A stretch of 64,000 nucleotides of DNA, taken from contig OY997592.1 in assembly GCA_963921825.1 (NCBI GenBank), forward strand, positions 22,385,432-22,449,431, read 5' to 3'. The stretch's first letter is position 1, and every line of letters starts with the position of its first letter. The position numbers and the translations under genes were made by a program. Positions 1,242 through 43,000 of the stretch are shown in pieces. Source of the DNA: Erodium maritimum (Eukaryota > Streptophyta > Magnoliopsida > Geraniales > Geraniaceae). The notes below the pieces were generated by a model. That model had not been told where the DNA came from and did no database searches. It was given only the letters and a program-made list of their open reading frames with translations.

Positions 1242-3559
1242 TGTTGGGTCTCAAGGTAGGGTTGGAGATGAAGTAACTCGCAGCGGAAAATCAATGAAAA
1301 CCAAGAGACAATTAAAACTATGAAATAACTAACAAAGAATGGATTCACAAGAGAAAAATTCAGCATTATTTCTTACCAAAACAAGAACACCAGGTAACGA
1401 ATGATTGACTTGAGTCTCCAAGACGCATACGTATCCACATGGGAATCAAAGTCACGTAGTTCTTCTCTTTGAGGACTCAAGAACACAAAAATGGAGGTGG
1501 GAGCTTGCCTTGGACGAAATTGCTATTGAGAGGAGGGAGAAGTTGTGTTTCCTATTCTTGTCTTGTGTTTGTTATGTTGGAAAAAGATGAGTTAAACATA
1601 ACAAACTTCATATTTGTCCAACTAAAGACATGAGACAAGTATGGTGACAAATAAGGTGTAAATAAGACAAAGTATGGCTAGATAAGATGGGGTTAGGTGG
1701 TGAATCACCAACACCTTAATCCTTGCCATGCTTACTTAGTACTAATTAATCAAGACTTGATTAATTAGTTTCATGGGCCTTGGTTGCATGGGCCTTTCAT
1801 GGGCCTCTTGGAACATGGCCCGTGGCCATTTCCAACGAGGTCCCGTGATTCGCTCATCGCCTCCATGCCTTTCATACTGGAAATGTCCAACATTATCCGA
1901 CGCGATCAATCCCAAGACTCCAACCCTTGTCTCGATCCGTAAAGTCCTATTCACTTACGAGCACATGACCCAAAACCCAGTTTTGGTCATGTCCCAAGAC
2001 AACTCTCTTTTGGCCATTTTCCATAAATGTGTCAATGAGTTTCACCCTCCGGTGTGACCCTTAGGTTTATGCATGTCAATAGATCAACGTAAAATCCCAT
2101 TTTACTTGGTCCTATTTAGATGGCAACTAACGAGACTTTAGTATTGTCTGACACTACATAACGAATCGACCCTGTCGATTCTAACCTTTCCGTCGTCTGT
2201 GTCATTATCCTTTTATCTTCGATATCCTGATTGAGATAAGGCATATAGCTATCATCCTTATTATTCTCAATCATTGTTCCTTGATATGTGAGATGGCTGA
2301 ATATATGATACCCAGTATCATGTGCATGGCCATGTTATTCTTTTAGTCACTCTCGATCAAGCGGCCGAGAACCTATATCTTTCCCATACCGTAGCATGAG
2401 GGATAAATCCCTTAGCCGTCTTTCGTGTCACTCATGTAGCCCGTCCCCAAGCCAATCATGGCCGTTATGGAAGCCCTGTTACGGACAACGTTAGGCTCAG
2501 GTCAAACTCAGTTGTTTATTGCATAGCGATGACAAAGACTCCTTGGTGTAAGGATACATGACAAGCTACGACAATGAATATGTTCATGACTTGATATATG
2601 ACACATATTCATGTCGGGTCGTCCAATATCATGTCACATATGATATCTATGATCAGTGTAAGAACCGCCCCGGTCGATCTCGGTCGAACCGGTGATTTCT
2701 GGCGAAGTTTAATTTTCGGCCGGAAAAGTCAACCGATGACTCCGGAAGTCATTCGGGATCTTTCCGGGGCCCAAAAAGCTTAGCCGTCATCACGGTTAGC
2801 TTAGTTGGGCCATTTCCTTTCGTTTGACTGTAATCTTGGACAAGTCAAATTTTGGTCAAACCGGGACTTTTTATCGACTAAATTCGATTTAATTTGAAGT
2901 GCTGGATTTTTAGCTAGGGACAAGTGGTCCCTACATGGACACTTGTCCATACTAGCTTGGAGGGGAAGAAAAGAGGTTAAAAAGACCCTTTACCCCTCAC
3001 TAGTGTCCTTAAGTGTATAAAAACCCAAAGGGCTTTTTGGTCTTCCATAAATTTAGGTCTTTTTAAGCTAGTGCTAAGGAGATTCGGCCGAAAATTCAGC
3101 ACACTCACTTGTTGCAGCCGAAAATTGCTAAGGAGAGAAAGGGAGAGCAACTTCATAGCTTGAGGAAGAAGAAAGAGAGAAAAGGAAGCATCTTGGACTC
3201 ATTTCTTCACCTTTTCTTCTCCAAAAGCTCCTTATCTTCATCATCTACTCATCCTAAAGGTAAGTACACTCCTAACTTCTCATTTGAATCATTTCCAAGT
3301 TGTGGGTCGTGTGGGTTTTTGCTAGAACTTGTTGGTTTTGTGGTTAGTATTGTTAGATGATTGTTTTTGGTGGAAAATTAGTGAAGTTAGGTTGATTTTG
3401 TTGTGTTTGTTGAAGCTTTGATGAAACCCATTGTGGGTATTGAAGTTTGTGGGTTTTTGATGGCTGTTTTGGAGTTGGTTGTTGGTAAATTTGGAGTTTT
3501 TGGTTTGGTTTTTCGTAGAAATCGAGTTGGGGAAGAAGCAGAGAGCCTGCTCTGGTCTG

Positions 3560-3840
3560 GCACGGAATGGGACCCGGAGAGGGCCATGTTCCGGTACGGT
3601 ACGCGGCGCGGAACGGGCCAGGTTCCGGCACGGTACGCGGCGCGGAACGGGCCAGGCTCCGGCACGGTACGTTGCGCGGACCGTGCCTAATTCCGGACCG
3701 GGGCGTTGCGCAGACCGTGTCTGCAACCGGGCCGGTATGTGGCACGCGCCGGGTCGGGTTCCGGGCCGATCTGTGGCACGGGTCGGGTTCCGGGCCGATC
3801 TGTGGCACGGGTCGGGTCGGGTACCGGACCAGATTCCAGA
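3560..3840 (+). repeat. GC-rich tandem repeat inside the Ty3 LTR
   Basis: Units of roughly 35-45 bases built on GGTACGCGGCGCGGAACGGG and GGTCGGGTTCCGGGCCGATC recur head to tail. Long open frames on both strands here come from the repeat and its GC content; the predicted proteins (Arg/Gly/Pro-rich) are not credible genes. Confidence 0.6.
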
Positions 3841-27882: not shown

Positions 27883-30800
27883 TGTCACGCCCCAATTTCA
27901 GTAAACCGAACTCGGGATGCGAACATTTAAAATCATAAAACATTTGAAACCTGTTTTGAATAAGCACTTTAAAATCTCCATTTAGTTAAACAAAATAATA
28001 CTTACAACTCAAAATAAGTCCCAACAAGTGGACAAAACAAGGTATCCGTCACTATACTCAAAAGTAAAACCCAGAATCCCGCTTCTAGCTCTTCAAGCTT
28101 CAGAAGCTCACCTAGTCCAACCTGCGACCGGTACCTATAGGAAAAGCAGCTAGGGGTGAGCGTTCGCTCACCACCACGGATAACAGACTGACTACGACAT
28201 AATTAGCAGACAATGCCGGTAACACCAACAATAAACTCAATACCGGGGAATACAATCCCCAACCCAAGTACTCCGACTGACACACGCCCACTGTTACCTT
28301 CCTTGACCAACTTAACACTCTGACACGTAAAGTAGACCCGACACAACGATCACGACCTCTTCCAAGGACTCAAAAGACCACCACACAACACTCAAGATCA
28401 CAAAGGATCGCACACCAAACAAGATCACAAAGGATCGCATACCAGTTGCTCAGTAATCTCCCTCAATCACGCGCTTTGCCGAACCACTCAGGCTAGGCGG
28501 TCGACCTGTATCAGTAACCTCTCTCTCTCATGCGCTTCCCCGACACAAAGTCGGGCCAGGCGGTCGACCTGTCGCACTCACAACCCCGAACCACACACGC
28601 GCGGCCAGGACCCCTTTACTGACGGGCGGGCCCCCTACCCCGTCTGAACATGCAGACGCGTGTGATCGAGGACCCCCGTTTCATGAAGCGGGCCCACAAC
28701 CTCAGGTAACCACAATCACAATCACAAACAAAGTTCAACAAACAGCAACGACACAAGTTCAGCACTCCACAAGCACTCATGGCCACCCAAGACACCAACC
28801 GTAAAACACGGACTCAACAACCCCACAGGCACTCACGGCCTCCCAAGATACACCAACAGTAACTCACGGGCTCAACAACCCCACGGGCACTCACGGCCAC
28901 TCAAAACCACCAACAGTAACTCACGGGCTCAACAACCCCACGAGCACTCACGACCTCCCAAGACACACCAACAGTAACTCACGGGCTCAACAACCCCACA
29001 TGCACTCACGACCTCCCAAGACACACCAACAGTAGAGACACGGGTTCAACAACCCCACGGGCACTCACAGCCACCCAAGACACACCAACAGTAGAGACAC
29101 GGGTTCAACAACCCCACGGGCACTCACGGCCACCCAAGACACACCAACAGTAAAGACACGGGTTCAAATACCCCACGGGCACTCATGGCCACCCAAGACA
29201 CCAACAGTAAAACACGGGCTCTCATGGCCACCCAAGACACAACAATATACCACGGGCTCTCATGGCCACCCAAGACACAACAGTAAAACACGGGCTCTCA
29301 TGGCCACCCAAGAAACCAAATTCACAATCAACCTCCGGCATAACCAATGCCTCCAACAGTCCCAATATCAACAGTTTCACAACCAACCTCCGGGCATGGC
29401 CATATGCCTCCAGTACTCCTAATATCGATAAGTTCACAATCAACCTCCGGGCATGGTCATATGCCTCCAGTAGTTCTAACATCGATAAGTTCTCTGCTCC
29501 TACGACACTACTAAGTGTCACATGCTTTTCTAATATTCGCTACGTTCCCGTATCATGCCTTTCTAGTATTCGATAAACCTACTTAACCCACGACACCCAA
29601 GTGTCACATGCATTTCTACTGTTAACTTTCCCTAGTCAGGGCCGAGATCCGGCTACTTTTCCCTACCTCGTGCGTGTTCTCCAAAAGTGCCCAAAAAGCC
29701 CCGGCGTGATCTCTGTCACTCGCCTAGCTTTCCTTTGCCTCGGTCCGCAGCACGATCTAAAAGAACACAATTTTAAACGCTTTTAAGCTTGCAGGCATAA
29801 TGCTGAATTTTAATAAACCTGCCGCCCAAAAGTAACGCCGACAATGTCGATCACTCCCAAACTCCCCAATTACTCGACATTGTCGATATTGGACCCGGAA
29901 AGGCCCGATTCGCCCGACATGGCGAATCTTCCCGGGTTTTGGAAATGCCCTTCCGGGGCTCCAAAAATTCCCGTTTTCGTTTCTACGGTCTTAGAATAAA
30001 TCAAGGGTCCCAATGTACTTGACGGAATCGAATTCCGACTTAGCGTTTCAAGTTCCTAAACCCGATAATTACAATTTTCGCATTTTAATTCCAAATTTCG
30101 ATTCGGCTAAGGACAAATGGTCCGGGGAACGTTCTAAACCACCCGAACATAAAACCCGAGCACCCGAGCACGTGGGCCCCACCCAGCCCAACTTGGTCGT
30201 GGGCCCTAGGGTTTAAATTGGGGCCTGGCCACCATGGTGGTGGCTGGTCCCAGCTCCGGCCAGCCACCCCATGGCCAGCCGACCACCACCCATGGTGGCC
30301 GGAGCTCCTCCCGAGCTTCCGGTCACCGAAAAACGTCAAATTTCACGTCCAAACATCTCCAAAACGTCTCCAACACTCCCCCAACATCAAAACAACCTTA
30401 AACTAATAGTTTCAAACCAAAACCTAAATCTAGAAAATGAAAAATCGAAGATCGGTTTGGTGTATACCGTAGAGGAAGACGAGGTGAGCTTGAATCTCTT
30501 CACTTTGAGACGATCTAAGGGTGGAGATGACGTGAATACTAACCAAGACCTCCCAAGCCTTCTCTTCCTTATCTCCTTCTTCTATCTCCCTTTCTCTCTC
30601 TAAAAGCCAATTTTTCTCTTCTGTTTTTGAAATGGACGTGTAAACCAACTTCTTTCCCTTTTGTTTTATTTTAAAAAAAAACAAACTAATACTTAAATGC
30701 AAACTAACACCTAAAGTAGTCTTCCTTGTCTGGTCCCACACCTAACACCACCACTTGCTTGACAAGTGGCAAGGTGGGTCCCACCCCTTTTAGAAAAATA

Positions 30801-34327: not shown

Positions 34328-34332
34328 GATCT

Positions 34333-34526
34333 TGTTATAATTTCTTTGTAGAAACCAATGATCGAGGGAACAAGAAGCTAACAATAAATTCACTGATCAT
34401 GGACAATATATAAGCACACGGTTGAAGCTATATTGTCAATGGAACAAGGTAGTTCATTCATCTCATTAATTACAAGGAAGATGATAACGTCTCGAGCCTT
34501 GCATGGTGGGCCACACATTCACAACA
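34333..34526 (-). repeat. 3' LTR of the hairpin-rich Copia
   Basis: See the element entry. The LTR is followed on the plus strand by CTCCCCCTTGG, the complement of the polypurine tract. Confidence 0.9.
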
Positions 34527-34566
34527 CTCCCCCTTGGACCACCGTTCTAAATATATCGAACGTGCT

Positions 34567-34990
34567 TCAAGTTGCCTCGTTAAAAACCTTTTCAGGAAAA
34601 CCTTGTGGGACAAAACCTGAATAAGGGAAAAAGAGTGCAACGTACAAAATGTGCTTGAAGTTGTGCTTGATGCTGCCTCATTAAAAACATTTCCAAGAAA
34701 ACCCTGTGGGACAAAACTTGGATAAGGGAAAAAGAGTACAGCGCACAAAACTTGTCTCCCCCTGACTTCAGGCAGGTTACTTTGGTTGTTCGGTTGAGTC
34801 GAGCATCCTGATCTTGAATATTAACTTCTCAACAAATGGATGTCAGGAAAGTCATACCGTGTAGAGTATTTCTTCCATTTACTCACTTCTGGTGAGTTGG
34901 ACGTGCATAACAGTTGTCTCGTTAACAACCTTTCCAGGAAAACCTCGTGGGACAAAACCTGAATAAGGGAAAAAGAGTGCAGCGCACAGA
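34567..34990. repeat. Three-unit repeat of about 85 bases
   Basis: Units at about 34567-34650, 34660-34747 and 34905-34990 share GCCTCGTTAAAAACC and TGGGACAAAACCTG, then AATAAGGGAAAAAGAGTGCA. The third is set apart by unrelated DNA. The same kind of block is known from the 3' region of plant Copia elements. Confidence 0.8.
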
Positions 34991-37900
34991 AACATACTCC
35001 CCTTGATTGTCACCCCCTTTGAAGACTGACTAAGTAATCGGTTGCTTGCAGAGTCGACTCATATTATCTTGTACACTGACTTTCCCAAAAATGATGTCGC
35101 CAGACTTCCAGTGAACAAACTTACAGGATTTCCACTTCATGATTCTGATTGACGTCAATCTCTCATGACTCTTCAGGAGTTCATGATTATATCATAATTT
35201 CGTACGAAAAATGATCGGTTGCAACTGAAAAACACTGACAACTGTCTTCTCAAATTATAACTGTCCCGGGACGCGCTTTGCAGATCTGCTTCTATCTCAA
35301 ATCCAGTTAGTAGCTTCCGAGCTCAAAATGGCTAGCATATTTACTGCGAATTTTCTATCAGGCCTAGTTTATTATAACGTCTCAAATTTAGATATGGTAC
35401 TTCAAGACCAAATATCTTTTCATCTCTTTGAAACAAATGAGATCCTCTTTAGGATATAAATATCGATCGATCGTTTGAATATTAAGTCAAAATCGCTTAA
35501 GGCGTTTCTTAGCATATACATATTTATGGATCCATTTGAAAATACGCTCGATCTTCAGGCCGAGACAATACTTAATTATCAAAGCTTTCATTTGGAAGAC
35601 TTTCTTTAAACATACTGCAGTTTCAAGGACCTCTTCAGGAGTTCATATATTATCGACCCACACTGCTTACTGAGTACATGGTTTCTCATACCATGTCTCA
35701 TTACCTCATGCAAATCAAACGCTTCAGAGAGTCATTTCTCTAGATAATCATAAATCCTTTGGGGAATGGCATTGCTTCTGGCAATTTAAATTTTCAAGGG
35801 ATTTGCTTTAGGCAAGTTGTAATGCTTCAGGCAATGCATGGGTTTCGCTTCAGGCAAACTACAATGCTTCAGGCAAACTGCAATGCTTCAGGCAATGCAG
35901 GTCCTTCGGGGACTTTTATAAATATCGGCACTTAAAAGTACGATTAGCAGTGGGTACATATATCTAATATACCATGGTGATCACACAACATAACTTTATC
36001 AAAAGTTGGCTTTAAGTCATTTGAGAACAATACATTTATAAGGCGCGCTTTATATTCAACATCTTTGTTTTCTCATTTGATTATGATTTTGAACATTGGA
36101 CATTATGCCAATAAGTCAATTCTTCTGGATTGACATTTTCTCGTTTTGGCCAAACATGTCTTTAAATGACACCAGTCAATACCACGTGGTTCAATATCAA
36201 AATCATCTACCATTTCAATCATGGTAATAGAAATGCTTTTATTAATGGAAATCTATTTTCGATTCCCTGCTTTCTTTTATGTGTGAGTAATTCATATGAA
36301 TTTTCTCATTTCTTTTCTCTTGCAACTCTTCAGGAGTATTAGGGCCTTTCGGCACTTCCGGGCCGATTGGTTCTTCTGGAACCGCCTTTGGATATGAATT
36401 TCCTCATTTCTTTTCTCTTGCAACTCTTCAGGAGTATTAGGGCCTTTCGGCACTTCCGGGCCGATTGGTTCTTCTTGAACTGCCTTTGGTGGTTTTGGCA
36501 CTTCTGGGCCGATCGGTTCTTCTCCCGGGCCGATCGATCCTAATATTCTTATCAACTTCGAGAATCATGCTTATTCATGATCTGCCTGATTCTTTCTTTC
36601 TTGAAATCAATATTATTTGATCCAAGTGACCTCTCACGCTTCTGGTGTGTAAGAGGAGTCATTCCCCGCTTTCACAAAGCTTTTAAATCTTTGCAGGTAT
36701 CTTGGCATGACCTAATTATTTTTCTAAATGCATCTAGCATTTGGTCTGCAACATTTTTCAAATGTGCGAGCTTATAAACTTCAGGTACACATGATGAGTC
36801 AAAAATAAATTTTCAAGAACACTTCACGCCTTACTTCGGGAAGGCATTTTCTCTTCACTTCAAGGTGAAGGATATCGTCTCATTAAAATCAAACTAACAG
36901 ATCATGCTATAAATATCTTGTCCTTTAGGGACTCAAGATACCATAAGACCATCTTCTGGATGCGTCTCTTTATAAAGTAAGTATCATGATACCGTAAGAC
37001 TATCTTCTGGATGCGTCTCTTATAAAATGAGTATTGTTATTTATATCCTCATGAATTCTATATATGAGTAATTGAAATTTCATACTAAAATTGTCTTTAG
37101 ATGGTTGGACCATTAACTTTTCTTGTGAACAAGTTGTACATGATATCTCATTGGACATTAGGATCTTCTGGCCCTTTAATGAATGTCCACATGAGTTCTC
37201 AATAATCCTACGCATCATCGTTGATCCAGGATGACCAAGACGATTAGGCCAAAGCATAAAAATATCTGGACTAATGAAATTCTGGTTCATAGTCGCGTAG
37301 GTTTCAATTTGCTCTTATGGTTGTATAATACAAACCTGATGATAGAGCTTGCAATTTTTCAAGTACATGCTTTTCACCTTATTTATCACTTCGGGTGATA
37401 TAGAGAAATTAAGTCTTATTTGTGGTCTCAACATGACATGTATGTCGTTAATGATGAGTAGATGCTTCTGGATCTACTTTAACATTGAGTAGATACTTCT
37501 GGGCATTAATGTTTAACTTCATTGTAAATCTCAATGACATGGTAGCTCTTCCGGAGCCTTTAGTTGCACTAATGGCACCCAAAATATTGTTAACCTTACC
37601 TCAATCAACTGTTTCTCACTCGTCAGGGCGTATTGTGTAGTGATACACATATCATTATCATTTTCGCACATGAATTGATCGCTTCAGGGATCCATATATA
37701 ATAGGCGAAATGAACCATGATTATATCAGTTACATCGTTATATAGAGTCGTCTGAGACATTCAATTCTTTTAGATCTTCCGGATCTAGGTCATCAATCAG
37801 ACTTTATCTCTATCACCCTTTTCTTTTGCCTTTATTTGATGCTTGATATAAAGCCATCAAAATATTTGGTCATACAACATGTAATCGACCAGTGATCTCT

Positions 37901-39332
37901 CCCGTCTTCATATATAACATATACTTTTATCGCTTTCGGGAGTTCAACTCTATAAGTAACTTTCTTTGTGTCTTTCGCATTTGTCCCACTTCAGGTGGGA
38001 TTTCGAGATCGAAAGTTATAATGCATGCTAGAATGATTGAGGTCTCAATATGTTCCGAGTCTAGAATTACCATCATGATTTATCCCATTCACTTCTGGGA
38101 ATGGTATACTGCCAGTATGGCGAGTTTGATGGTTTTTCAGTAATAACTCATTATTTCGGCAATGAGTATACAGGAAATTAACTTTGAATATATAAGTTCG
38201 TATTTCCCGATATTAATATCGTGGGAGCATATCAGATGAAGGAAGAAATAGTTTCTTTATAACCAAACTAATATGGTGATATTTGGCAATAGTAATATTG
38301 ACATGTCTTATAGGTACTCGTCATTCAAACCTTTAATCTCTGAATAAATTTTCAGTTTTATATGAACTTCTGGCCATATAAAAAAATGGCACCTTGAATC
38401 AGAAACTCGAATTTTGTGAAATTTAAGTCGATATGAACTTCTGGCCATACGACATTTTAAAATATTGCACATATCAAATTCTCATTAAAATAATGGTTCA
38501 ATACATTCAAATTCTATGAAACTTTAAGTCTGTGTGAACTTCCGGCCATACGACCTTTAACAGTGGTGCACACATAAATTTTCACTTGAACGAATGGTGC
38601 ATTGATCTTATCTCAAATTCCGTGAAATTTGAAGTCTGTATGAACTTCTGGCCATACGACATTTAGAAATGGTGCACATATCTATTCCATTTGAACGATT
38701 GATCCACTAAACATATTTTTAACAATTTTGGAACTTCAGGCCCAAAGTACCTCAATATTTGTAAACTTCGGGTTACAAATATACAACATGTAAGTCATCA
38801 CAATTAGATATATAAAACCACACAATGAGCGAACTCATGGGGTAAACATAATAAATGCATTAATTAAATATATGTATAACCGCACAACGAGCAAGCTCGT
38901 GGGGTAGACAGAATAAGTAATCGCATATAAAATTTTAGGCTCCATGCCTTGGACACAAGTTACAGGCTTCAGGCCTGTGGTTTCGTCTTGTAACCTTAAT
39001 ACAAGTTACAGGCTTCAGACCTGTGGTCTGTAATCTTCCTTTACAAACATTTTACAGGCTTCGGGCCTGTGGTTTGTCAATCGGTCATAAATATAAGCAT
39101 CAAGCTCTAGACTCGTGATTTATCCTTTGACCGTATAGGCAAGCATCAGGCTTCGAGCCTGTGATTTATCATGTGATCGCAAAAGGCAAATATCAAGCCC
39201 CGGGCTTGTAATTTATTATTTTTGCCATAAACTCAAGTATCAGGCTTCGACCATGTGATTTTTCATTTGGCCGTTCAGGCACATATCAAGCTTCGGTTTA
39301 TAATTTTCATTTGGAGCTTCTGGTCGCAAATG
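34765..39332 (+). repeat. Dispersed CTTCNGG hairpin array
   Basis: I count about 39 exact CTTCNGG on the plus strand of this 4.6 kb, against about one expected by chance. Most are the apex of a short inverted repeat with loop TTCNG and an unrelated stem each time. Clear cases: 34881-34897 (ACTCAC/GTGAGT), 36369-36383 (GGTTC/GAACC), 37384-37400 (TATCAC/GTGATA), 37771-37787 (TAGATC/GATCTA), 37984-38000 (TCCCAC/GTGGGA), 38962-38978 and 39054-39070 (ACAGGC/GCCTGT). Others have longer stems with one bulge, for example 38758-38779. Loop N can be A, C, G or T. On the element's sense strand the loop is CNGAA. The pattern stops near both LTRs. Confidence 0.85.
37000..37290 (-). pseudogene. Copia GAG-pre-integrase fragment
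   Basis: Minus-strand reading holds RLGHPGSTMMRRIIENSCGH and CTTCSQEKL, matching the GAG-pre-integrase domain with its H-x-C-type zinc-binding pattern that precedes integrase in Copia pol. It is the clearest coding trace in this broken element. Confidence 0.85.
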
Positions 39333-39631
39333 ATTCAATTTCAATACAAGACCGCTTTACAAATAAGTTAGTAAAACAAACATGCATAACGAAACTTAAT
39401 ATGTAACGAGATTTAGATACGAACATATTTTTCTGATGTGAAAGATCCAAAATACCATTTGGCGATCACAGAGCATACTTATAGGGTATAAAAACCAGAT
39501 TCAAATTAGTATGGAACGAACACAAATATATTTCACGAGTAGCGTTAATAAATAATATGAACGAATCAAATTTATGATAATATGAAACTTTATACCTGAA
39601 CGATCGAAGAGAGCTCTTCGTGTTGATAACG

Positions 39632-39825
39632 TGTTATAATTTCTTTGTAGAAATCAATGATCGAGGGAACAAGAAGCTAACAATAAATTCACTGATCATG
39701 GACAAAATATAAGCACACGGGTGAAGCTATATTATCAATGGAACAAGGTAGTTCATTCATCTCATTAATTACAAGGAAGATGATAACGTCTCGAGCCTTG
39801 CATGGTGGGCCACACATTCACAACA
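39632..39825 (-). repeat. 5' LTR of the hairpin-rich Copia
   Basis: It pairs with 34333-34526 and ends next to the GATCT duplication at 39826-39830. Confidence 0.9.
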
Positions 39826-40087
39826 GATCTGCATTTATAAAAAAAACAGAGTTGTGCAATTACTAAATTTCATTTTCACTGAATTTTCTAGGGATAACAA
39901 CTATTAAATCTTACCCATTAGATGGCTCTAAATGGATTTACACTTACAAACATAAGATTGGTTTAAGGGGATATTGCCCTACTCTAAGGTAACAATAACT
40001 TTCTTATGCTACGAATGTTCCTAATGCACTAATTTTCAAATATTAATCAATCATCTTAGGAATGAAGAATCCATAGACTCTGACATT

Positions 40088-43000
40088 TCAGATACGTCCC
40101 CTCTTCACTAGTGCCCAGGCTATGGCTCCAACTGCAGCTCCACCCAAGTGAGCTGACCCCGATATCTCACTATCTCCCTGCAACAATAAAATATGATATC
40201 AACTCTGAAAATCATACTCAGATGGAATTTCTCGCTGTCATTATGGCCTGTTGGAGGATAATATGCTGAAACATGTATCCATCTTTTCGATAATGCGTCA
40301 TGACTAGGTTGGCAAGGATGTGACGTGTGAGGGGAGGAAAGAGGTAACTAGAATTTCTCACAGGACTTATTTGAGAGCCTAAGGTACAGAATGGTTGTAT
40401 ATGAACGAGTTTGTTGGTTCAAAAGCAACACATTTCCGAAAGTAAAAAAAAAAAAAGTTAATATAATAACTTGGAAGGAATTGGCAATGCAACAAATACC
40501 TCTATAATCCTCAGCGTATCTTTTCCAATCAGAAAAATTCCCTAAGGACAATAGCCAAAACAAATTCATAAGGGAAACGACCAATCATTAGTATACAAAA
40601 TATGGATGCAAGCTTACCAATAAGATAGCAGGAACAGGTATTATGAAATCGAGATAAAGAGTTGCTGTTGGAAAGAGGAATATATTAAGCAGCATGATAG
40701 CATTCACCGCCCCGCTTGCCCCCTATATCAAAAAAGCCACAACCAACAAGTCAATGGAATGGATTATTCATCCATCTTGTGTGGAGCTGTAAGGTGACTT
40801 GGACCAATTATGAGTGATGATTTGATAATGTTTTTGATGACATAAATGGAGCATATGCTAGGTACTTCCAGGAAGATCCTAGTCGTTGCAATTATCAATA
40901 AGGGTATAAGTAATGGATTAGAGGAAATAAATGAAATAAATGTTAGAACATTATTATGCGGATGCTTATCAATATGTTTTCATTTCACTCGAATATACAC
41001 ATCAAGCACTGCCAGTTGGATGCTTGCTAAATGCTCAAAACCATTAAATGATGAATAATTCTCTACAAAATAAATGCCATCTCAGTGCTACAAGCACACA
41101 TGGTGAGAGAGACGAATCCACAAGACGTCTTTTAGTCCAACAAAGTTATTAAATTGACAGGACAACGATGCAAATGTTTATATTAAAGCTGCATATTTCA
41201 AAAACCAGTAAAGGCAAAACCCAAAAGACTAGTGAGGCAAATATGTACACTAAAAAACATAAAAGGTTTTGTTAAAGCCGGATCCAACCCAAAAGCTTGA
41301 GCAGATGGGTGGTCACTTAATCCACATCCTTTCGAGGTGGAACCAGAACACTCCTCACGTGCGGGCCACACCAAAGTAATAAACCATGTAAGAGAATGCA
41401 TAACCATACACAATTGGATAAGGATTTGCCACTATATATTTTCATATGATAATTGTCCAAAACCACCCTAAAGTTTCGTCCACAAATGAGTTGATGCACA
41501 AAGTTTTGTCCACGCTGTGTGGCTACCCTGAAGTTTTGTCCACGCTTTTGTGGGTGCATTGAAGTTTTGTCCACGCTTCTATTCAATCCGGGAAGCACTG
41601 CCCAGAGGCCCCAGACCATCATTCTGAACATCCCTATTACGTCAAAACTAAAAAAGTGTGGACAAAACTTCAGGGTAGCCACACAGCGTGGACGAAACTC
41701 TGTGCATCAGCTCGTTTGTGGACGAAACTTTAGAGTAGGTTTGGACAATTATCCCTATTTTCATTACACCATCTTTGTGCAGAATCTTTGATAGGTAACA
41801 ACATTCTTAGTATATGAGAAGTTGCCTCATCCTTCAATGATGGATGATAGTGTCAAAAGTAGGATATTTGAGAATACTTGATTACATTTTTCTGTTAAGA
41901 AAAAAAGATAAAGAGCTGGATATATAATGGGATGGCAAAAGCATACCAGTGCAGGAGCATTTGGATTTCCGTGCCACATTCTTGCGCCCTGTAAGTAACA
42001 AAATGTGAGGATAGTCTCAGACTGCTTATATCAAAAGAGTTCAAGAACTTAACAAGCCATATCAAATGAATAGGTGACTGAGGTTGTCATGTTTGTTTAA
42101 TGAGTGGAATATTCTCTTAATAAGTGAGCTAGTGGCATTCCACTTAAAGTAAGCAGAAAAATGTCTACCTTGATGTGTAATCAATGAACAAAGTTTTAGA
42201 GGCAAGAGAAATGCTCAGACTAACAAAGCCCAGTTGAACTTATTTTAGTCTTTATATGAAGTGCATACAAAATCCCAAGTATTTACTCTTTTGAACCAAA
42301 ATAGTATTACATGCTGATAGATTAACATAATACCTTTGATGACATGCTGATATAACTCTTGTGAACCAAGTAGAAAACCGAACCACCAATTGCCCCAGCT
42401 AGGTACAACTTCAATAAAAATCCAGGCCCAAAAGAATTTCCAATCTGCTCAATGAAGAAAAATTAGTACAATACAAATATGACTAATAAATATGTCCTTA
42501 TGCAATAAGGTTGCCACTATTAATTGTGTAATTCTTAACCCATCAATAAGAGGAATTTGTAGTCTTCAGTAACTTAAATTTTACCAATGAGCAGAAATTG
42601 CAAGCACCAATTTTTTTTCTCTTCTTTCCTCATTTGGAAAACACAAATAAGAAAGATTAGCTTCTCAAGCTCATTTCCTAAAGCTAAGTTTCATCATCCA
42701 ATTCTCTTTAATATGTCAGTAAGATATAAATACCATAAAACATTTTTTCTAAAACAGAAGAGTCCAAGGCCGGTAACTTACATGCACTCCGAAGAAGTAA
42801 AGTCCGATCATGTTAGAAATGATATGTCCAGTATCAATATGACTGAATGCAGAAGTTATCAATGTGTGTATACGTCCATTTTTGAAATTCTCCAAAGACA
42901 GCTGCTCAGATAACGCCAATATGTCAGTGTAAGGAGTTCAAAAATCAACTACTAAATTAAAATTGACAATTTTGAGCCTTAGCACACAGTATGATTGCAG

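What the first reader, a model, noticed from the sequence alone, without database searches (positions are those of the whole stretch)
34765..39332. About 39 hairpins with a shared TTCNG loop and unrelated stems inside one Copia element
CTTCNGG occurs about 39 times on the plus strand in 4.6 kb, where about one is expected, and hardly at all on the other strand. In most cases the bases on either side are complementary for 4-8 pairs, so each is a hairpin with loop TTCNG (CNGAA on the element sense strand) closed by C-G. The stems differ, so this is not simple copying of one hairpin; it looks as if a loop is fixed and stems vary. A codon bias for Pro-Glu explains a few cases in the PEVPK linker but not those in non-coding parts. 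Possible causes are selection for RNA structure, a small hairpin-forming insertion process, or fold-back copying during reverse transcription. I know of no described element with this property.
Basis: partly seen in the sequence, partly recalled or inferred. Interest (0 to 1): 0.8.

Follow-up and report, generated by a model that had tools for sequence, protein, structure and literature searches.

The report
Copia retrotransposon peppered with loop-sharing hairpins
A plant jumping element carries dozens of small RNA hairpins that share one loop but have different stems, and the pattern looks selected at the RNA level, perhaps as docking sites that get the element's RNA packaged by proteins of a coding relative.

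Summary
The element (34333-39825, minus strand, 194-bp LTRs, TSD AGATC) has 41 CCNGAAG on its sense strand and 0 on the other; 2,000 shuffles average 1.1, maximum 7. Twelve of the 41 drop out as look-alikes, mostly tandem copies; 19 of the remaining 29 have a stem of 4 bp or more just outside the heptamer, against 2.6 by chance. Stems start flush with the heptamer or after one extra 3' base, never after one extra 5' base. It is a family trait: 29 other fetched copies have 11-41 sense motifs; 30 loci, nearly all of one other Copia lineage, have 0-2 per strand. A relative with long gag and pol frames has 22 motifs in coding sequence; synonymous shuffling gives 9.6 (maximum 15), and 9 stems of 4 bp or more against 0.39. 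Motif columns show few shared substitutions and persist across diverged lineages. Codon bias, tandem copying and chance are not enough: the hairpins look selected in sense RNA. Function is inferred: I favour dispersed Gag-binding packaging or assembly sites, kept and multiplied in a non-autonomous derivative. No binding was tested; within-family covariation was uninformative.

The parts
34333..39825 (-). complete non-autonomous Copia-type LTR element that carries the hairpins; sense is the minus strand
   Evidence: LTR pair, 5-bp TSD, 4 differences in 194 bp, fragments of gag, PR, INT and RT only
39632..39825 (-). 5' LTR (194 bp, TG...CA); no CCNGAAG
34333..34526 (-). 3' LTR (194 bp); no CCNGAAG
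39826..39830 (-). target site duplication AGATC, 5' side
   Evidence: read
34328..34332 (-). target site duplication AGATC, 3' side
   Evidence: read
34527..34535 (-). polypurine tract before the 3' LTR
   Evidence: read
34766..39323 (-). span of the 41 CCNGAAG heptamers (their + strand starts are listed)
34886..34892 (-). motif, flush hairpin, P(closed) 0.99
37389..37395 (-). motif, flush hairpin, P(closed) 0.99
37776..37782 (-). motif, flush hairpin, P(closed) 0.97
37989..37995 (-). motif, flush hairpin, P(closed) 0.99
38766..38772 (-). motif with 10-bp stem and one extra 3' base
38367..38373 (-). motif with 10-bp stem (G-U counted) and one extra 3' base; tandem relative of the 38438, 38539 and 38645 sites, with changes in both arms
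38967..38973 (-). motif in the 47-bp tandem array, 6-bp stem
38942..39269 (-). 47-bp tandem array, 7 units aligned; 2 of the 7 keep an exact CCNGAAG
38406..38682 (-). 101-106-bp tandem repeats, each with one hairpin
36294..36489 (-). 98-bp tandem repeat of the Pro-Glu-rich INT-RT linker remnant; carries several motifs
35847..35895 (-). 19-bp tandem repeat of a motif
38063..38248 (-). gag remnant (aa 148-210 of the relative's 344-aa Gag query, 46% identity)
   Evidence: tblastn
36943..37594 (-). PR / GAG-pre-integrase / start of integrase remnant
   Evidence: tblastn
35309..36216 (-). RT remnants in pieces
   Evidence: tblastn

Best explanation
The sense RNA of this Copia lineage carries many hairpins of one design: apical CCNGAAG (loop CNGAA, closing C-G), a stem of varying sequence, and often one unpaired non-G base just 3' of the heptamer. 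Shown by sequence statistics: the motif is far above chance, strand-specific, linked to flanking stems, more frequent than coding requires in a long-ORF relative, and kept while the family multiplied. Inferred: the loop is read by one RNA-binding protein, most likely the Gag made by long-ORF relatives, so that the sites act together as dispersed packaging or assembly signals; the non-autonomous element, freed from coding, kept and multiplied them by point change and tandem duplication and so competes for Gag in trans. My estimate: RNA-level selection about 0.9; Gag packaging or assembly about 0.45.
For: Enrichment and stems. Family-wide: 29 of 29 other fetched copies have 11-41 sense and 0-3 antisense motifs; in the 3' part 15 sites are shared by 13-27 of 29 aligned rows. 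Coding level: 22 motifs against 9.6 and 9 stems of 4 bp or more against 0.39 under synonymous shuffling; CCNGAAG is the commonest one-N heptamer of the relative. Purifying pattern: motif columns 7 shared to 42 singleton variants, background 278 to 559, P = 0.0045; matched windows P = 0.0004, unmatched windows P = 0.021. Across lineages: 13 of 24 sites testable, mean conservation 0.60 against 0.27. One set of four tandem units has three pairs changed on both sides with pairing kept. Trans-mobilisation: 4 differences in 194 LTR bases and only pieces of gag, INT and RT; relatives with ORFs of 1,000-1,200 aa exist, and one has a copia-type Gag match plus a zinc knuckle below Pfam's cut-off.
Against: No binding or packaging data. 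Within-family both-sided paired changes are no more than chance (3 against 2.6); the 47-bp units give one such pair only. In the relative, stems of 5 bp or more are not significant (1 against 0.10, P = 0.10; any register 3 of 24 against 1.7), and the Pro-Glu linker shows no stem excess (P = 0.13). 15 of 41 window sites have no 4-pair stem in the registers examined. One relative only was read, in one unnamed plant genome. The integrase core of the relative has 1 site in 900 nt and the window LTRs have none.
Confidence: 0.5

Rival explanations
1. The hairpins are bound by a host RNA-binding protein and serve RNA stability, nuclear export, splicing or translation control rather than packaging.
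For: The same sequence evidence fits any sense-RNA reader; GAAG words resemble splicing-enhancer words (recalled).
Against: The other Copia loci sampled have only 0-2 per strand in 3.7 kb, which favours an element-specific reader; but these are nearly all one lineage and show a mild sense excess of their own, 20 against 5 in 108 kb.
Confidence: 0.28
2. By-product of protein coding (Pro-Glu and Leu-Lys words) plus tandem duplication, with stems by chance.
For: 10 of 10 Pro-Glu of the L068 ORF are written CCNGAAG; 12 of 41 window sites are look-alikes, mostly tandem copies.
Against: 3,000 synonymous shuffles reach at most 15 motifs (22 observed) and at most 3 stems of 4 or more (9 observed); stems stay significant after removal of look-alikes; the motif is kept in the decayed family.
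Confidence: 0.07
3. A DNA-level or reverse-transcription-level process (hairpin insertion, fold-back copying, template switching at hairpins) creates the sites.
For: Several tandem arrays carry a hairpin in each unit; the strand bias would fit a process acting on RNA.
Against: Sites are shared by copies without bordering indels outside the 19-bp array, in the part aligned; stems differ while the heptamer is fixed; few shared variants at motif columns point to selection.
Confidence: 0.07
4. The hairpins help reverse transcription or RNA dimerisation of the element itself (pausing, strand transfer, kissing).
For: Many copies along the RNA; sense-specific.
Against: The complement of the heptamer occurs 0 times on the sense strand of the element; the complement of the 5-nt loop occurs 6 times on it in 34765-39332, so some loop pairing is not excluded.
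Confidence: 0.08

Closest known systems
Dispersed packaging signals of ssRNA viruses (human parechovirus 1, PMC5431903, passages seen; STNV, MS2 and HBV only in the search listing)
   Same: Many hairpins along one RNA, a shared short loop motif, varying stems, also inside coding sequence
   Different: There the coat-protein contact has experimental support; here a protein contact is inferred. Here an exact heptamer stands out by plain counting
BARE1/BARE2 of barley (PMC3735527, passages seen)
   Same: Copia element lacking Gag whose RNA is packaged by a coding relative
   Different: No dispersed loop-motif hairpins in the passages seen; packaging and dimerisation signals are said to be conserved in BARE2
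Sirevirus repeated motifs (PMC2829016, passages seen)
   Same: Copia elements with many copies of a short dyad motif
   Different: Those are palindromes with a CGG-CCG core in LTRs or near env; here the LTRs have none and the loop, not the symmetrical core, is the constant part
Ty1/Ty3 RNA packaging (review PMC4974528, passages seen)
   Different: No repeated loop motif was named in the passages seen

Membership tests
Ty1/Copia LTR retrotransposon | direct LTRs TG...CA with short TSD | tested here: met
   194-bp LTRs, 4 differences, TSD AGATC
Ty1/Copia LTR retrotransposon | INT upstream of RVT_2-type RT | tested here: met
   met in the relative L068 (rve, then RVT_2); the window copy holds only fragments
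Ty1/Copia LTR retrotransposon | primer binding site matching a tRNA | not tested
   no comparison was made
Non-autonomous LTR element mobilised in trans | insertion with near-identical LTRs but no intact gag and pol | tested here: met
   the donor of the proteins is not shown
Dispersed packaging-signal system | many hairpins with a shared loop motif and varying stems | tested here: met
Dispersed packaging-signal system | sites conserved between relatives | tested here: met
   (13 of 24 sites testable)
Dispersed packaging-signal system | loop bound by the capsid or Gag protein; loss impairs assembly | not testable with these tools
   needs binding and assembly assays
Sirevirus repeated-motif boxes | palindromic CGG-CCG boxes in the LTRs | tested here: not met
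   the heptamer is absent from both LTRs and its constant part is the loop; no separate search for CGG-CCG boxes was made
Rfam families | covariance-model match | tested here: not met
   0 matches at E up to 5 in 34333-39825

The most novel reading that the evidence does not exclude
A plant Copia lineage has an RNA code of about 20-40 hairpins spread along its transcript, read by its own Gag through the heptamer CCNGAAG with an asymmetric 3' bulge and written into coding sequence by synonymous choice; a parasite derivative has shed its genes and filled much of its length with such sites.
Probability: 0.4. Interest if true: 0.88.

Novelty: new variant of a known kind. Interest (0 to 1): 0.73.

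Why it matters
What marks LTR-retrotransposon RNA for packaging is not clearly defined (PMC4974528, passage seen). A repeated, countable loop motif gives a direct test with purified Gag and short RNAs, and a way to see how non-autonomous elements compete for a partner's proteins. It would bring the dispersed packaging-signal idea from ssRNA viruses to retrotransposons. I saw no description of such an element among the rows listed (15 of 33; 20 of 28; 20 of 61; 15 of 3,086; 15 of 37), judged by titles and starts of abstracts; the library lacks most subscription papers.

Tried and rejected
Chance: rejected. Tandem amplification of one unit: 12 of 41 sites are look-alikes, 10 of them in repeats (repeats). 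Pro-Glu coding: explains part only. A general Copia trait: 30 of 30 RVT_2 loci have 0-2 per strand, but 28 of the 29 with an ORF over 300 aa are one cluster at 60% identity, so this control is nearly one lineage. Known RNA family: none. Relatives in viral contigs: none confirmed for Gag or pol. Covariation inside the family: uninformative; 47-bp units weak; 101-106-bp units three pairs but four rows. Genome-wide variants of one hairpin: 105 places against 1 in the reversed control, letters shown for 56, little variation in the left arm; two earlier versions of that pattern were mis-spaced by me (0 matches; 1 match). Small-RNA precursor: stems of 4-10 bp are too short for that in my judgement; no small-RNA data were available. 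The Bpu element of Cycas mitochondria shares the word CCTGAAGC (recalled, not tested).
Full report
What is there. The window holds a complete insertion on the minus strand, 34333-39825: two 194-bp LTRs (TG...CA) with 4 differences, a 5-bp duplication AGATC and a polypurine tract. tblastn with the Gag, PR and pol pieces of a relative finds only separate fragments, so I take the copy to be non-autonomous. The few LTR differences suggest that it moved fairly recently, and so probably in trans (inference; no dating was done).

The count. CCNGAAG occurs 41 times on the sense strand and never on the other; 2,000 dinucleotide shuffles average 1.1 with maximum 7. It is the commonest heptamer with one free inner position in the element and in the long-ORF relative. 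Of 59 CNGAA in the element, 41 are closed by C...G.

The structure. Next to the heptamer the flanks are complementary far more often than when flanks are swapped between sites. Stems of 4 or more pairs (G-U counted) begin directly at the heptamer (10 of 41, 1.2 expected) or after one extra base on the 3' side (15 of 41, 1.7 expected); one extra 5' base gives 0 of 41 (0.6 expected). In all 26 of 41 sites have such a stem and 15 do not. In the listing the extra base of the 15 sites with one extra base, and of the 5 such sites of the relative, is T, A or C, never G. After removing look-alikes (flanks 60% or more alike) 29 sites remain, and 19 have such a stem with 0-2 extra 3' bases (2.6 expected, maximum 8 of 1,000 shuffles); with the relative's 24 sites it is 32 of 53 (4.1 expected, maximum 11). 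Partition-function folding agrees: closure probability 0.49 against 0.07-0.11 with 14-base flanks, and 0.43 against 0.04 in context of up to 157 bases. For the relative the figures are 0.40 against 0.06-0.10 for 24 sites and 0.24 against 0.03 for the 15 sites of L068.

The family. A search with 2,236 bases of the 3' half reported 156 matches after scoring 40 of 1,360 candidates. Thirty loci were fetched, one being the window copy. The 29 others have 11-41 sense and 0-3 antisense motifs in about 4.6 kb. For the 3' part I aligned 29 rows (28 copies plus the window; L033 dropped for a late start, L005 as the same copy): 15 sites are shared by 13-27 rows and 5 are private. So those sites are inherited, not new in this copy. 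Thirty RVT_2 loci of other Copia elements have 0-2 per strand; 29 of them together have 20 sense and 5 antisense in 108 kb, and 28 of the 29 cluster as one lineage at 60% identity.

Selection. (1) The relative at C1:610900-618600 (L069, L068) has a 347-aa gag frame with a copia-type Gag match and a sub-threshold zinc knuckle, and a pol frame reported as 1,165 aa. Its coding parts hold 22 motifs; 3,000 synonymous shuffles average 9.6, maximum 15; stems of 4 or more 9 against 0.39, maximum 3; stems of 5 or more 1 against 0.10, not significant. Split by part, motif number is above shuffles in all five (P 0.043 or less) and stems of 4 or more in four; the Pro-Glu linker alone shows no stem excess (P = 0.13). 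All 10 Pro-Glu of the L068 ORF are written CCNGAAG. (2) Among copies, motif columns show 7 shared and 42 singleton variants against 278 and 559 in background columns (P = 0.0045), and fewer shared variants than control windows (6 against 13.5, P = 0.021; GC-matched 6 against 17.2, P = 0.0004), while singletons are not fewer. Six of the 7 shared variants lie at the CNG cytosine or guanine, as methylation decay would give (inference). (3) Between the relative and the decayed family, at alignments under 85% identity, 13 of 24 sites could be tested; copies keep the heptamer at 0.60 on average (over half the copies at 9 of 13 sites, none at one site) against 0.27 for other heptamers (P = 0.0008) and 0.22 for GC-matched ones. 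Four of the 13 lie in the repetitive linker, where alignment is less certain. (4) Covariation: inside the family 3 both-sided paired changes against 2.6 expected, no evidence. Tandem units: seven 47-bp units, one pair changed on both sides, 23 of 500 shuffles as high on the score; four 101-106-bp units, three pairs changed on both sides, 14 of 500. The structure used for one search was drawn by me on these same rows, which flatters it.

How it most likely works. Shown: a fixed heptamer on varied stems, sense strand only, kept by selection beyond coding. Inferred: one RNA-binding protein reads the loop. An element-specific reader is the simplest, because the other Copia lineage sampled lacks the excess and because copies without intact genes keep it. 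Gag is the natural candidate, and packaging or assembly the natural role, as in viruses with dispersed packaging signals (PMC5431903, passages seen) and as BARE2 RNA, which lacks Gag, is packaged by BARE1 (PMC3735527, passages seen). Neither binding nor packaging was tested here; a host protein with a role in export, splicing or translation is the main rival.

Comparison. Sirevirus repeated motifs (PMC2829016, passages seen) are palindromic boxes in LTRs; these hairpins are absent from the LTRs of the window copy and have a constant loop instead. A Ty1/Ty3 review says that scattered sites may contribute to packaging but that cis-acting sequences are not clearly defined (PMC4974528, passage seen). 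The rows listed by the paper searches show no description of such an element as far as titles and starts of abstracts tell; most lists were capped and subscription papers are mostly missing.

Limits.

Against the first version I corrected the description of the 12 dropped sites (look-alikes, mostly tandem), the number of sites without a stem (15 of 41), the loop-complement statement (0 for the heptamer, 6 for the 5-nt loop), and the scope of literature and control claims.

Noticed in passing
L018:2260-2535 and its copies: A 92-aa frame related to the RT core has no stop in 21 of the first 30 matches listed (the window copy has two) although the RT around it is decayed; whether it is still translated is unknown.
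   Followed up: partly
34562-34991: Three copies of an 88-bp repeat (84-85% alike) between the RT remnants and the 3' LTR; the relatives also show several matches to this stretch.
   Followed up: no
41448-41753: Inverted repeat with 102-nt arms, 92% complementary, 102 nt apart; looks like a fold-back element.
   Followed up: no
28764-29336: Array of units spaced 56-59 bp passing into units spaced 38-39 bp, in a stretch with strong C over G skew.
   Followed up: no
L069:2070-3110 and 3221-3700: Gag and pol of the long-ORF relative lie in different frames with a gap between them; frameshift, separate translation or damage not resolved.
   Followed up: no
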